Positions 8,423 through 38,964 of a stretch of DNA of 38,964 nt are shown here, piece by piece. Positions within the stretch are counted from its first letter, which is position 1. Each line of letters opens with the position of its first letter. Source of the DNA: an uncultured Erysipelotrichaceae bacterium (GTDB lineage: Bacteria; Bacillota_I; Bacilli_A; Erysipelotrichales; Erysipelotrichaceae); the NCBI GenBank assembly GCA_945875435.1, contig CAMCKH010000010.1:1-38964 (forward strand). Reading direction: 5' to 3'. The notes beneath the pieces are model-generated. The model worked only from the letters and a program-made list of their open reading frames with translations. It did not search any database and was not told the origin of the DNA. Both the position numbers and the translations under genes were made by a program.

Positions 8423-9093
8423 TATTCCCACCCCACTATAATTTCAAATCTTCCATCTTTGTTTTTGATAACATAAAACTCGCCTCTGTTAGTAAAGATA
8501 TTTTCATCAAATTTTGCTTTATCCTTATAAACCCAAGTCGCAACAACTCTATAAATCATTTCAGCATCTTGTACTTTAAAAAGATTTTTGTCTTGTGCTA
8601 AAACATTAGCTTCAACACTTTCAACTTCAATTAAGTTATTGACACCATATTCATTCTTATAAATCGCAAAATATTTATAAAAATGATTTTGAGCTTGTAG
8701 ATAAAGATTGATTCTAGTAGGACTATAAAGATAATAAACTCCACCAACATCATAAGATCCTGCCTTATTACTCCAAGTATACATATCGGCTACATAATTT
8801 TTTACTATAAGTTCCGCAATCAAAGAATCTTCTTTTTCATTTTTATTTAATTCTTTTTCTAATTGTTTAAAATATTCTTTTTGAATACTAGTAGCATTAT
8901 GTCTTAAATGGTAATCATACCCTTCAATGTTGTCTAGTGAGTTTTTATTTGAAGTAACACTAGAATTTTTAATGTTTTTTACGGTTGAAATTATATTAAA
9001 TCCCAATAATAAAATCACAAAAAATAAAGGTATACAAATAATTATTGTCAATAATCTTCTAGTCTTTCTTTTTTTAAATATACTTTTTTTCAT
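8422..9093 (-). CDS. Membrane-anchored protein of unknown function, upstream partner of the LCP gene
   Basis: About 223 residues. A positively charged start (MKKSIFKKRKTRR) is followed by one membrane helix (about 15-38). A soluble extracytoplasmic domain of about 180 residues begins with a Ser/Asn linker and helical, Lys/Glu-rich sequence, and ends in a beta-rich part (YRVVATWVYKDK ... GEFYVIKNKDGRFEIIVGW). The layout resembles small NTF2-like or peripilin-type exported domains, but I cannot name a family. Start: an upstream ATG at 9129 would overlap dusB, and the promoter places initiation at 9093-9094, so I choose 9093. It is coupled to the LCP gene by a TAATG overlap, suggesting a shared envelope role. 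Confidence 0.7.
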   Translation of the reverse strand: MKKSIFKKRKTRRLLTIIICIPLFFVILLLGFNIISTVKNIKNSSVTSNKNSLDNIEGYDYHLRHNATSIQKEYFKQLEKELNKNEKEDSLIAELIVKNYVADMYTWSNKAGSYDVGGVYYLYSPTRINLYLQAQNHFYKYFAIYKNEYGVNNLIEVESVEANVLAQDKNLFKVQDAEMIYRVVATWVYKDKAKFDENIFTNRGEFYVIKNKDGRFEIIVGWE

Positions 9094-34912: not shown

Positions 34913-35404
34913 TTATACCTCCTCATCACTTAAAAAGTTTTTTAATTTTTCCCATTGCGAATCAATTTTGGTTTTTTTACTTTCCCTCAACTGTTCTTCA
35001 GTCATAACTTTCCAGCCATCTCCTATAGGATACTCTATTTTGCCTTTTTTTACAACTTTTATTGGTATTTCTTTTGAAATCAAATAATAAAACAAATCTT
35101 TAATATTCAATTCATTTTTAAATTGATATGAATCTTGTTCTTTATCATCTATACAAAATTCTTCAATTAAATCAATCGGTACCTCAACATCTTCTAAGCT
35201 GATAGCACAAGGGCAGACTAAAGTAGCTTTCAATTTTACTTTGAGAATCGTGTTTAAGTTAAGATCATCATAAAATTTTATCTTAGCCAAAACATCTTTA
35301 ATATCTCTTAGATAAATATCCTTGATATCTTCTTTATCAAACGATACTTTGATATCTAATTCCTTTTCTTTTAATTGATTTATTTCATTTCTTGTAATAA
35401 TCAT
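34913..35404 (-). CDS. yceD: YceD/DUF177 family protein
   Basis: A 163-residue acidic protein. The family hallmark [21 protein letters not shown] (Cys pair after LKATL) is near the middle, and the Asp/Glu-rich C-terminus is typical. DUF177 proteins are encoded next to rpmF across Bacteria and in plants are linked to 23S rRNA accumulation; here the pairing is kept. The promoter is consensus, but the roughly 20-nt leader has no Shine-Dalgarno sequence in the usual position. Confidence 0.9.
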
Positions 35405-35425: not shown

Positions 35426-35454
35426 ATTTTATGGTAAAACTTCATTTTTGTCAA
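35426..35454 (-). promoter_or_regulatory. Promoter of yceD-rpmF, embedded in the end of the S66 peptidase gene
   Basis: On the - strand, consensus -35 TTGACA (35454-35449), a 17-bp spacer and -10 TAAAAT (35431-35426). The hexamers fall within the last codons and stop (35429-35431) of the upstream gene, and no terminator separates the two. Confidence 0.78.
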
Positions 35455-36199
35455 TGAAATTACCAATTAAAACAGCTTTTGAATCATTTATGTGTCCTAC
35501 ATAATTGTAAGATTCTATTTCTAAATCTTTAAAATAATTTTTAAAAACCTGAATAATAGCTGCTCTATCTTTAATTTTATAAAAATTTCCTACGATAATT
35601 TTATTTGAAAAACTAATATTAGTATTATTTTTTAAATATTCTAAATACAAGTTTAAATCTACTAGCGATGCTTTGTAGGATTCTAATATAATTTTTTTAT
35701 TTTTAAAATCATAGTTATACTTCTTTAAAAATTTAATCAGACATCTAATATTACCACCTACTATATTAAATTTATCAGGATAAAATAACTTTTCAAAATC
35801 ATTAAAAAATGTGTTACAAATATCTTTGTTTTTTAAAATATTGTTTATATTAAATAATATTGATTTTTTATTTGAAAATTTACTCAAAGCACTAATAATG
35901 ACGGTGTTATCACTATAACCCATATATATACTTTTGCTTTTAGCAATCAACTCAAAATCAAGATAAGCCACAACTTTTTCAGCACTATCCCCACCACTCA
36001 CATCTATTATTAAATCTAAATCTAGATTAAAATAATTATTTAAAATGCTGGCTTTTGCTTCATAACTGTTTGTTTCTTCAAAATCTAAAACCTCTATTCC
36101 ATATTCTTTAAAAATATTTTTTAAAATTAAAATATTATTTTCATTATAATTATCAGAACAAGCACAAAAAGCTATTTTCTTAATTTTATTTATTTGCAT
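35429..36199 (-). CDS. S66-family peptidase (LD-carboxypeptidase/MccF-like)
   Basis: A 256-residue serine peptidase of family S66. Family blocks are DVSGGDSAEKVVAYLDFELI, the nucleophile elbow YMGYSDNT (Ser96), FNIVGGNIRCL (144-154), and the expected Glu (Glu173 in KIILESYK) and His (His236 in YVGHINDSKAVLIG), giving a complete Ser-Glu-His triad. LD-carboxypeptidases trim tetrapeptide stems of recycled peptidoglycan; MccF homologues cleave microcin C-type nucleotides. The protein is shorter than usual (about 300), with a compact C-terminal domain. The -10 TATAAT at 36211-36206 leaves only 6 nt before the ATG, so the mRNA is probably leaderless. It is divergent from tmcAL. Confidence 0.82.
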   Translation of the reverse strand: MQINKIKKIAFCACSDNYNENNILILKNIFKEYGIEVLDFEETNSYEAKASILNNYFNLDLDLIIDVSGGDSAEKVVAYLDFELIAKSKSIYMGYSDNTVIISALSKFSNKKSILFNINNILKNKDICNTFFNDFEKLFYPDKFNIVGGNIRCLIKFLKKYNYDFKNKKIILESYKASLVDLNLYLEYLKNNTNISFSNKIIVGNFYKIKDRAAIIQVFKNYFKDLEIESYNYVGHINDSKAVLIGNFIDKNEVLP

Positions 36200-36222
36200 A
36201 TAAAAATTATAACATTTATGAT
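36194..36222 (+). promoter_or_regulatory. Promoter of tmcAL, leaderless configuration
   Basis: -35 TTGCAT (36194-36199), a 17-bp spacer and -10 TATGAT (36217-36222). Six bases separate the -10 from the ATG at 36229. The -35 overlaps the divergent gene's start codon. Confidence 0.72.
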
Positions 36223-36234
36223 ATAGGTATGAAA
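36206..36234 (-). promoter_or_regulatory. Divergent promoter of the S66 peptidase gene, leaderless configuration
   Basis: On the - strand, -10 TATAAT at 36211-36206, 17 bp from a partial -35 TTTCAT (36234-36229) that overlaps the tmcAL start codon. Six bases separate the -10 from the ATG at 36199. The two divergent promoters interlock within 29 bp of intergenic DNA, so polymerases would compete. Confidence 0.65.
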
Positions 36235-37299
36235 ATCGCAGGTATTATTGTTGAATATAACCCTTTCCATTACGGTCATCTTCACCATATCAACGAAACT
36301 AAAAGACTCACAAAGTGTGATATTTTAATTGCGGTAATGTCTGGTGATTTTAACCAACGAGGTTGTATTAGTATTATTGACAAAAAAACTAAAGTAGAAA
36401 CTGCTTTAAATAACGGTATTGATTTAGTAATTGAACTTCCTGTGCAATTTGTTTTAAGTAATGCTGAAATTTTTGCTTTAAAAGCTGTTGAAATTTTAAA
36501 TTATTTTAATGTTTCTGAAATTGTTTTTGGATCAGAAAGTAATGATTTAAAACTATTAGAAACTTTATCTAATACTACAATTGATTATAGTGTTGTAAAA
36601 GAAAAGATGAAAACAGGTATTTCTTATGCTAGTAGTGTTGGTGAAATGTTAGGAGATTTAAAAGCTAATGATATTTTAGGATTAAATTATTTAAAAGCTA
36701 TCAAAAAAATAAACCCTAATATTAAAGCTACTACTATTAAAAGAAACAACAACTATCATAGCTTAGAAATTCAAGATATATCTAGTGCCTCTGCGATTAG
36801 AAATGCGATTAAAAATAATATTCCTTACGAAAAAACAACTCCTATCAGAATTTCTAAACCTCAATTCAATAATAAATATTTTGACTTATTAACTTATAAA
36901 TTAAATTTTGAAACTGAAAAATTATCAAGATTTTATTTAGTTGATGAAGGGATTGAAAATCATTTAAAAAAAATAATCAACATTTCCACTGATTATGATG
37001 ATTTTATAGATAAAGCGATAAACAAAAGATACAGTAGATCTAGAATTGAAAGAATACTTATTTCTATTTTATTAGAAATTGAAAAAAATATTGATTTTAA
37101 TTCTTATAAAATTAGAATTTTAGGTTTTAAAAATAAAGCATCTTTTCTTATTTCAAAACAAACAAAAATAGCTTATAAATTCAAAGATTTGAAAGATGAA
37201 CTTTACTTAAAAAGCACTAAACTTTATAGTTATAATTTACCTTTAAAAGATAAACAGGAACTATTAAAAAATGAACTTATTTTTCCTATTATTAAATAA
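36229..37299 (+). CDS. tmcAL: tRNA(Met) cytidine acetate ligase TmcAL (YlbM family)
   Basis: A 356-residue nucleotidyltransferase-fold protein. The ATP-binding motif is NPFHYGHLHHI (His14, His17), followed by AVMSGDFNQRGCISIIDKKTK and a later ISSASAIRNAI block, as in YlbM. The enzyme uses ATP and acetate to make N4-acetylcytidine at the elongator tRNA-Met wobble base. It is somewhat shorter than the B. subtilis protein (about 415). The elongator tRNA-Met gene is about 1.3 kb downstream at 38619. No Shine-Dalgarno sequence precedes the ATG. Confidence 0.92.
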   Translation: MKIAGIIVEYNPFHYGHLHHINETKRLTKCDILIAVMSGDFNQRGCISIIDKKTKVETALNNGIDLVIELPVQFVLSNAEIFALKAVEILNYFNVSEIVFGSESNDLKLLETLSNTTIDYSVVKEKMKTGISYASSVGEMLGDLKANDILGLNYLKAIKKINPNIKATTIKRNNNYHSLEIQDISSASAIRNAIKNNIPYEKTTPIRISKPQFNNKYFDLLTYKLNFETEKLSRFYLVDEGIENHLKKIINISTDYDDFIDKAINKRYSRSRIERILISILLEIEKNIDFNSYKIRILGFKNKASFLISKQTKIAYKFKDLKDELYLKSTKLYSYNLPLKDKQELLKNELIFPIIK

Positions 37300-38323: not shown

Positions 38324-38397
38324 GGTTCCTTAGCCAAGTGGTAAGGCAATAGACTGCAACTCTGTGATCATCAGTTCAAATCTGATAGGAACCTCCA
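38324..38397 (+). tRNA. tRNA-Cys (GCA)
   Basis: A complete cloverleaf with acceptor GGTTCCT/AGGAACC, discriminator T and encoded CCA. The anticodon loop CTGCAAC gives GCA. It is the first gene of the array. Confidence 0.95.
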
Positions 38398-38404
38398 ATT
38401 AGTT

Positions 38405-38490
38405 GGGGATGTGGCGGAATGGTAGACGCGTCGGACTTAAAATCCGGCGATAGTAATATCGTAAGGGTTCAAGTCCCTTCATCCCCACCA
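38405..38490 (+). tRNA. tRNA-Leu (TAA)
   Basis: Acceptor GGGGATG/CATCCCC, discriminator A and encoded CCA. It has a long class II variable arm. The loop CTTAAAA gives anticodon TAA. Confidence 0.95.
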
Positions 38491-38530
38491 TCTGATTTAG
38501 TAGCTTGGTTAAAACTATACTCAATATTGT

Positions 38531-38607
38531 CGGGATGTAGCACAGCTTGGTAGTGCACTTGATTTGGGATCAAGGGGTCGCAGGTTCAAATCCTGTCATC
38601 CCGACCA
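38531..38607 (+). tRNA. tRNA-Pro (TGG)
   Basis: Acceptor CGGGATG/CATCCCG, discriminator A and encoded CCA. The loop TTTGGGA gives anticodon TGG. The 40-nt spacer before it (38491-38530) shows no feature. Confidence 0.95.
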
Positions 38608-38618
38608 TTTATTTATAT

Positions 38619-38695
38619 GGCGAGGTAGCTCAGTTGGCTAGAGCACTCGGTTCATACCCGGAAGGTCGTGGGTTCGAGTCCCACCCTCGCTACCA
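38619..38695 (+). tRNA. tRNA-Met (CAT), elongator
   Basis: Acceptor GGCGAGG/CCTCGCT with a G-T first pair, discriminator A and encoded CCA. The loop TTCATAC with CGG/CCG stem pairs resembles the B. subtilis elongator tRNA-Met. It lacks the initiator's GGG/CCC anticodon stem and 1-72 mismatch. The outer pair of the anticodon stem (C-A) is mismatched. Confidence 0.85.
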
Positions 38696-38710
38696 TGAGC
38701 TTGCAAGAAC

Positions 38711-38787
38711 GGACCCTTAGCTCAGTTGGTCAGAGCTACCGGCTCATAACCGGTTGGTCGCAGGTTCGAGTCCTGCAGGGTCCACCA
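38711..38787 (+). tRNA. tRNA-Ile2 (CAT, lysidine-modified), CAT anticodon
   Basis: Acceptor GGACCCT/AGGGTCC, discriminator A and encoded CCA. The loop CTCATAA would be called Met by anticodon alone. C4-G69 and C5-G68 pairs, the perfect ACCGG/CCGGT stem and overall likeness to E. coli ileX indicate the AUA-reading tRNA-Ile2 whose wobble C is converted to lysidine by TilS. Confidence 0.75.
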
Positions 38788-38800
38788 TTTTTTAAATTAA

Positions 38801-38891
38801 GGAGAAATACCCAAGTGGTTGAAGGGGTCGGTCTTGAAAACCGAAAGGTCGTGTGAGCGGCGCGTGGGTTCGAATCCTACTTTCTCCGCCA
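38801..38891 (+). tRNA. tRNA-Ser (TGA)
   Basis: Acceptor GGAGAAA/TTTCTCC, discriminator G and encoded CCA. It has a long class II variable arm. The loop CTTGAAA gives anticodon TGA. The G discriminator is a serine identity element. Confidence 0.95.
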
Positions 38892-38896
38892 TATAT

Positions 38897-38964
<68 letters not shown>

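What the first reader, a model, noticed from the sequence alone, without database searches (positions are those of the whole stretch)
36194..36234. Interlocking divergent promoters that both look leaderless
In 29 bp between the S66 peptidase and tmcAL, the + promoter is TTGCAT-17-TATGAT and the - promoter has TATAAT. Each -10 lies 6 nt from its own ATG, and each -35 overlaps the opposite start codon. Neither gene has a Shine-Dalgarno sequence. Both transcripts should therefore begin at or next to AUG, and the promoters cannot be used at the same time.
Basis: partly seen in the sequence, partly recalled or inferred. Interest (0 to 1): 0.55.

Follow-up and report, generated by a model that had tools for sequence, protein, structure and literature searches.

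The report
Back-to-back promoters for leaderless genes
Two neighbouring genes that point away from each other are separated by only 29 letters of DNA, which appear to hold two overlapping promoters whose messages begin right at the start codon; the layout looks real and recurs in related bacteria.

Summary
The geometry is real: 29 bp between the S66 and tmcAL start codons, a -10 box exactly 6 nt from each ATG, and no Shine-Dalgarno (SD). The claimed -35 boxes are not supported. The leaderless reading is strongly supported by comparison, but there are no RNA data. In 418 kb of this genome, SD-less first genes carry a -10 at 6-9 nt in 29 of 49 cases, SD-led ones in 3 of 73. Of 90 tmcAL starts read in the family (33 genera), 54 have the -10 at 5-8 nt, 30 have an SD, none both. 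The layout is not unique: in seven leaderless-rich genomes 20 of 38 divergent pairs 12-70 bp apart look doubly leaderless. In one related genus it is a fixed 22-bp symmetric element, CAY-N6-ATTATATAAT-N6-RTG, in 30 of 36 genomes; all 21 sites inspected (of 54) open genes both ways, in eight gene pairs. Leaderless genes and overlapping divergent promoters are each known; eight paper searches showed no description of the start-codon-to-start-codon combination. Mutual exclusion fits the geometry but is untested.

The parts
36200..36228 (.). 29-bp gap between the two start codons, holding both promoter cores
   Evidence: sequence
36217..36222 (+). -10 box TATGAT of tmcAL, 6 nt from its ATG, no TG extension
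   Evidence: gap-6 position conserved in relatives
36206..36211 (-). -10 box TATAAT of the S66 gene, 6 nt from its ATG, preceded by an extended TG (36214-36213)
36229..36231 (+). tmcAL start codon and predicted transcription start (36229)
   Evidence: start supported by Pfam profile; transcription start inferred
36197..36199 (-). S66 start codon and predicted transcription start (36199)
   Evidence: start supported by Pfam profile; transcription start inferred
36194..36199 (+).
36229..36234 (-). TTTCAT, position of a -35 for the S66 gene at spacer 17; 2 of 6 to consensus, function not supported
36229..37299 (+). tmcAL (HIGH_NTase1 family, PF05636)
35429..36199 (-). S66 peptidase (LD-carboxypeptidase family) gene
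34913..35404 (-). yceD, orthologue of the gene that is the direct divergent partner of tmcAL in many relatives

Best explanation
The 29-bp gap holds two separate sigma-A type promoters placed back to back. Each consists mainly of a -10 box (extended with TG on the minus side) set exactly 6 nt before its own ATG, so RNA polymerase starts each message on the A of the AUG and both mRNAs are leaderless (inferred). Ribosomes then have to start on the 5'-terminal AUG without an SD (inferred). A polymerase bound for one direction covers the other start, so the two cannot be occupied at the same instant (inferred); whether this couples expression is unknown. This is one instance of a common layout in this bacterial family, where leaderless genes are a large class in part of the genera and closely spaced divergent genes are often both leaderless (shown by sequence statistics). 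The tmcAL side is shared by many relatives; the S66 side belongs to this lineage, since S66 stands between tmcAL and its frequent partner yceD.
For: Geometry. Leaderless -10 position in SD-less against SD-led first genes: 29/49 vs 3/73 in G000, 33/53 vs 0/43 in G002, 39/68 vs 1/72 in G091, 16/34 vs 0/39 in G179, with a sharp onset at gap 6. tmcAL orthologues: 54 of 90 with the -10 at gap 5-8 (44 at 6), 30 with SD, none with both. Close divergent pairs: 20 of 38 doubly leaderless at 12-70 bp, 4 of 37 at 71-150, 2 of 28 beyond. Another 29-bp pair with both gaps 6 in G002. Extended -10 without -35 and a 6-7 nt distance to the start are what 5'-RACE found in Mesoplasma florum (PMC7745072, passages). 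Among 86 divergent partners only the window's is S66; 37 are yceD by phmmer.
Against: No 5'-end data for this organism. The leaderless class is not universal in the family: 0 of 8 SD-less first genes in G051 and in G081, 1 of 4 in G037, 2 of 6 in G031. 30 of 90 tmcAL starts are SD-led and 6 fit neither class. The gene caller is a simple script. For S66 there is no close orthologue to check (24 of 195 genomes, 28-39% identity to the relatives), so its side rests on geometry and genome statistics alone.
Confidence: 0.85

Rival explanations
1. Leadered transcripts start further upstream inside the neighbouring gene, and the -10 matches near the ATGs are chance in 27% GC DNA.
For: Promoter-like matches are everywhere in this DNA (52 found, 49.7 expected), for example TTAAAA-18-TATAAT at 36121-36150 upstream of tmcAL. 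There are no RNA data.
Against: Gap 6 is enriched 15- to 62-fold over other ATGs and confined to SD-less genes; tmcAL keeps the -10 at gap 5-8 in 54 of 90 orthologues; both boxes at gap 6 arise in 0.13% of shuffles. A leader without SD would be needed on both sides.
Confidence: 0.08
2. Only the tmcAL side is a leaderless promoter that matters; the S66 box is a weak or by-product divergent start, and S66 is made mainly from another promoter.
For: The tmcAL side is conserved, the S66 neighbour is not. Divergent starts can arise from promoter symmetry (PMC10268837, passages).
Against: The S66 box is the better one by consensus (TATAAT with extended TG) and stands exactly at gap 6 of a credible start; no other promoter fits in the gap.
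Confidence: 0.12
3. A single shared, symmetric -10 (bidirectional promoter in the sense of Warman and colleagues) drives both genes.
For: In genus g3 the tmcAL/yceD element is of that form: overlapping -10s in ATTATATAAT, predicted start sites 23 bp apart, one of the common distances in PMC12825309 (passage).
Against: In the window the two -10s do not overlap (5 bp apart) and the predicted start sites are 30 bp apart, outside the 7-25 bp definition (PMC10268837, passage).
Confidence: 0.05

Closest known systems
Leaderless (TA-led) genes of bacteria, Zheng et al. 2011 (PMC3160421, passages seen)
   Same: TATAAT-like box about 12 bp before the start codon, no SD, TG peak in low-GC genomes
   Different: The passage names Lactobacillales and Mycoplasma as the Firmicutes clades; here it is a family inferred to be Erysipelotrichaceae. 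Paired, back-to-back leaderless starts are not in the passages seen.
Back-to-back overlapping promoters and leaderless mRNAs of Mesoplasma florum (PMC7745072, passages seen)
   Same: Extended -10 without -35, starts 6-7 nt from the -10, some starts on the start codon, divergent genes with overlapping promoters, all mapped by 5'-RACE
   Different: The passages treat leaderless starts and overlapping promoters apart; the combination on both sides of one gap is not described there
Bidirectional promoters (PMC12825309: abstract, outline, passages and Discussion seen; PMC10268837: passages)
   Same: Two divergent starts that exclude each other on the DNA; the genus g3 element fits the 23-bp class and the 17-bp pair of G000 the 18-bp class
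   Different: The window pair has separate -10s and predicted starts 30 bp apart; the word 'leaderless' does not occur in the main text of either paper

Membership tests
leaderless (TA-led) gene | TATAAT-like box about 12 bp (first T) before the start codon | tested here: met
   first T of each box 12 bp before its ATG; genome-wide class
leaderless (TA-led) gene | no Shine-Dalgarno before the start | tested here: met
   SD score 0 for both genes
leaderless (TA-led) gene | transcript starts at or next to the AUG | not testable with these tools
   no RNA data
bidirectional promoter (Warman/Grainger definition) | divergent start sites 7-25 bp apart | tested here: not met
   predicted 30 bp apart in the window; 23 bp in the g3 element
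bidirectional promoter (Warman/Grainger definition) | -10 elements shared or overlapping on opposite strands | tested here: not met
   5 bp between the two -10s in the window; overlapping by 2 bp in the g3 element
back-to-back overlapping divergent promoters | two separate promoters whose polymerase footprints overlap, facing away | tested here: met
   geometry of the 29-bp gap
back-to-back overlapping divergent promoters | both directions shown to be transcribed | not testable with these tools
   no RNA data

The most novel reading that the evidence does not exclude
Start-codon-to-start-codon, doubly leaderless divergent promoters are a selected layout in this family: the whole space between two genes is reduced to promoter cores (17, 22, 29, 35 bp and more) and the start codons serve as transcription start sites. 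In one genus it has become a fixed 22-bp symmetric element reused by at least eight different gene pairs, in which the orientation taken by each polymerase alone decides which of two leaderless mRNAs is made.
Probability: 0.5. Interest if true: 0.62.

Novelty: new variant of a known kind. Interest (0 to 1): 0.5.

Why it matters
It extends predicted leaderless initiation to a family where the survey passage read here did not name it, and shows how close two divergent genes can lie: the lower bound is then set by promoter geometry and not by leaders. The 22-bp element is a minimal natural test of whether orientation choice by RNA polymerase couples two genes. It also gives a simple rule for finding true start codons in these genomes. 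tmcAL, which is leaderless in some genera and SD-led in others, with both kinds inside two genera, offers a natural series for asking how the initiation mode changes in evolution.

Tried and rejected
A coding-score start chooser misplaced the tmcAL start (36337 instead of 36229) and was dropped for the most upstream ATG that does not overlap the neighbour, then a revised caller; the two differ slightly in counts (42 of 121 SD-less first genes, 49 of 122) and agree in result. -35 elements were looked for in leaderless sets of four genomes and are not clearly above shuffles (z about 0.5 to 1.7). Symmetric 18-bp class: pattern CAYN5TATWATAN5RTG in 17 genomes gave 13 sites and 3 sites for the reversed control; only 2 of the 13 open long genes on both sides (L266, L267), and one more lies inside the 22-bp site of G185, so that pattern is not specific. 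The 22-bp pattern with one mismatch gave further sites in the 17 genomes and one control site, in G194; the one such site inspected (L256) is one-sided, and the two in G000 each lose a start codon. In the class, 5 sites lie outside the order and only 1 of them (L304) opens long ORFs both ways. S66 orthologues were too sparse and distant to test the S66 side. The first partner scan missed ORFs open at the start of the stretch and was repeated. One note gives 35 genomes for genus g3; recounted from the list it is 36.

Full report
WHAT WAS CHECKED. The window is contig 10 of a 1.17-Mb, 20-contig assembly (G000); GC of the window is 28%. The S66 and tmcAL start codons face away from each other across 29 bp. 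The plus -10 TATGAT (36217-36222) and the minus -10 TATAAT (36211-36206, with TG one base before it) each stand 6 nt from their ATG. Pfam supports both gene names and both starts. My scan finds no SD on either side.

CHANCE. Promoter matches in the last 9 kb of the window equal the shuffled expectation (52 vs 49.7), so the test must use position. Genes were called by a simple script on 418 kb of the genome; the promoter motif was not used in choosing starts. 'First' genes are ATG genes that are divergent or more than 40 bp from the gene before. With the final caller, 21 of 122 first genes have a -10 (at least 5 of 6, with A2 and T6) at gap 6, against 1.1% of 13,192 other ATGs (15-fold); the ratio is 28-fold in G002, 62-fold in G091 and 36-fold in G179. 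The signal is confined to genes without an SD: -10 at gap 6-9 in 29 of 49 against 3 of 73 in G000 (Fisher p=7e-12), 33/53 vs 0/43, 39/68 vs 1/72 and 16/34 vs 0/39 in the three relatives. The peak begins abruptly at gap 6, as expected if the AUG must be transcribed whole. Mononucleotide shuffles of the 29 bp give both -10s at gap 6 in 0.13% of cases. The class is not universal in the family: 0 of 8 SD-less first genes in G051 and in G081, 1 of 4 in G037, 2 of 6 in G031, 2 of 4 in G088, 3 of 4 in G055, 6 of 10 in G045 and 7 of 17 in G098.

PROMOTER TYPE. Aligned on the -10, 26 leaderless-type genes of G000 show T at -3 (69%) and G at -2 (54%), both together in 9, and no -35 (TTG at spacer 16-18 in 2 of 26). 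In four genomes the best -35 match is not clearly above shuffles. This agrees with the extended -10 promoter of Mesoplasma florum, where starts lie 6-7 nt after the -10 (PMC7745072, passages).

ORTHOLOGUES OF tmcAL. 177 of 195 family genomes have a tmcAL match, G000 included. I read 90 start regions: the 30 loci returned and the next 60 of its list, that is the 90 best-scoring of 177, not a random draw. 54 have a -10 at gap 5-8 (44 at 6, 9 at 7, 1 at 8), 30 have an SD of at least 4 nt, none has both, 6 have neither by these rules. By genus: 14 leaderless-type without SD-led, 17 SD-led without leaderless-type, 2 mixed (g18, g57), of 33. The SD-led ones often have very short predicted leaders: the nearest -10 is at gap 15 or 16 in 14 of 30. 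Of 49 named loci (L031-L079), 48 could be read; 43 have an SD and only L031 has a -10 at gap 5-8. L031 is titled Erysipelotrichaceae bacterium RGIG591 and its TmcAL is 61% identical to genus g3. From this I infer that the family is Erysipelotrichaceae or close to it; no tool named G000.

THE DIVERGENT PARTNER. 86 of the 90 loci have a divergent ORF. The window's own yceD, which lies just beyond S66, finds 37 of these 86 partners by phmmer, including all 12 in genus g3 that sit at 22 bp; S66 finds only its own. Pfam, run on five of these partners, supports YceD above its cut-off for two, just or well below it for two, and not at all for L203. Another 41 partners are similar to two hydrolase-like partner proteins by blastp; that label is mine, from motifs, and was not checked in Pfam. 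So tmcAL/yceD is a frequent pair, and in G000 the S66 gene stands between the two. Doubly leaderless-type tmcAL pairs with -10s at gap 6 on both sides occur in three genera: g1 (this window, 29 bp), g3 (22 bp, 12 of 14 loci) and g9 (35 bp, the one genome read).

A RECURRENT LAYOUT. In seven genomes rich in leaderless-type genes (G000, G045, G098, G179, chosen, and G002, G091, G147 of genus g3, fetched later), 20 of 38 divergent pairs 12-70 bp apart have a leaderless-type -10 on both sides, against 4 of 37 at 71-150 bp and 2 of 28 beyond. These counts include the window pair and three orthologous tmcAL/yceD pairs. In six other genomes (G088, G055, G037, G031, G051, G081) it is 1 of 5 at 12-70 bp. 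G002 has another pair with the window's geometry (29 bp, both gaps 6). G000 has a 17-bp pair on contig 2 (a Ham1-family gene and a phosphotransferase-family gene) with overlapping -10s.

THE FIXED 22-BP ELEMENT. The pattern CAY-N6-ATTATATAAT-N6-RTG occurs in 14 of 195 family genomes, all in genus g3 (14 of the 15 drawn); the reversed control pattern finds none. In the order it occurs in 31 of 315 genomes: 30 of 36 in g3, one in g32 (G284), none in the 43 of the other family; the control finds none. These are 54 sites. I inspected the 21 for which loci were returned, and all 21 open ORFs of at least 91 aa from both start codons. Many are the same gene pair in related species, so they are not 21 independent cases; they fall into eight gene pairs: yceD/tmcAL (9 loci), uracil-DNA glycosylase/Mur-ligase type (3), HD/TraB (2), PfkB/Mur ligase (3), TruB/PP-loop (1), acylphosphatase/unnamed (1), GNAT/GH25 (1), GH25/SNase (1). 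Pfam was run on one locus per pair and the rest were assigned by eye from N-termini. Among the 12 g3 tmcAL loci that contain the palindrome (2 of 14 do not), the 12 bases around it are only 38% identical on average; the palindrome is invariant there by selection of those rows. In the class the pattern occurs in 6 of 395 genomes, G002 being the only g3 one; of the other five sites one is two-sided. Predicted start sites are 23 bp apart, one of the common distances of bidirectional promoters (PMC12825309, passage). The exact 22-bp element is not in G000.

HOW IT MOST LIKELY WORKS. Shown by sequence: geometry, absence of SD, positional enrichment, recurrence. Inferred: start sites at the A of each AUG, leaderless translation, exclusive occupancy. 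Exclusion need not matter at low activity: the abstract of PMC12825309 reports that basal activity of five E. coli promoters is too low for competition and that activation of one direction can repress the other.

COMPARISON AND NOVELTY. Leaderless mRNAs and back-to-back overlapping promoters are both reported in M. florum (PMC7745072, passages); M. gallisepticum has nine transcripts that appear leaderless (PMC4245973, passages). Zheng et al. [quoted passage not shown] Eight searches, read as listings with titles and beginnings of abstracts, showed no paper on doubly leaderless start-to-start promoters or on leaderless genes in Erysipelotrichaceae; several lists were cut to 20 papers, and the library lacks most subscription journals. 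PMC10783764 (passages) lists Erysipelotrichia only in a table of anti-SD types. The 2021 paper that defined bidirectional promoters was not seen; I know of it from recall and from the later papers cited here.

VERDICT. A well-predicted pair of leaderless, overlapping promoters, and one member of a recurrent layout; the -35 part of the claim falls away. The more surprising result lies in the relatives: the fixed 22-bp element.

Noticed in passing
window 35426-35454, minus strand: Near-consensus promoter TTGACA-17-TAAAAT (11 of 12) at the very end of the S66 gene, 21 nt before the yceD ATG, so yceD probably has its own promoter.
   Followed up: no
window 3364 (+), 31912 (-), 9093 (-): Other starts in the window flagged as leaderless type by the script; the one at 9093 lies inside a gene cluster and its start is uncertain.
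   Followed up: no
L158, L192, L143, L025, L141, L017, L011, L019: tmcAL start: SD-led tmcAL genes with the -10 at gap 15-16, predicting leaders of only about 9-10 nt that begin with the SD itself; possible intermediates between leaderless and leadered.
   Followed up: partly
L148 (G055), upstream of tmcAL: tmcAL -10 at gap 6 interlocks with a full-consensus TTGACA-17-TATAAT facing the yceD side, so another form of interlocking divergent promoters.
   Followed up: partly
L266 (G000 contig 2, 26969-26991): 17-bp divergent pair with overlapping -10s, both 6 nt from the start codon, Ham1-family and phosphotransferase-family genes.
   Followed up: partly
window 38324-38964: Run of seven tRNA genes at the contig end, the last one cut off.
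   Followed up: no
G000 whole assembly: No 16S rRNA match in the assembly, so the anti-SD sequence could not be read; SD use is inferred from enrichment only.
   Followed up: no
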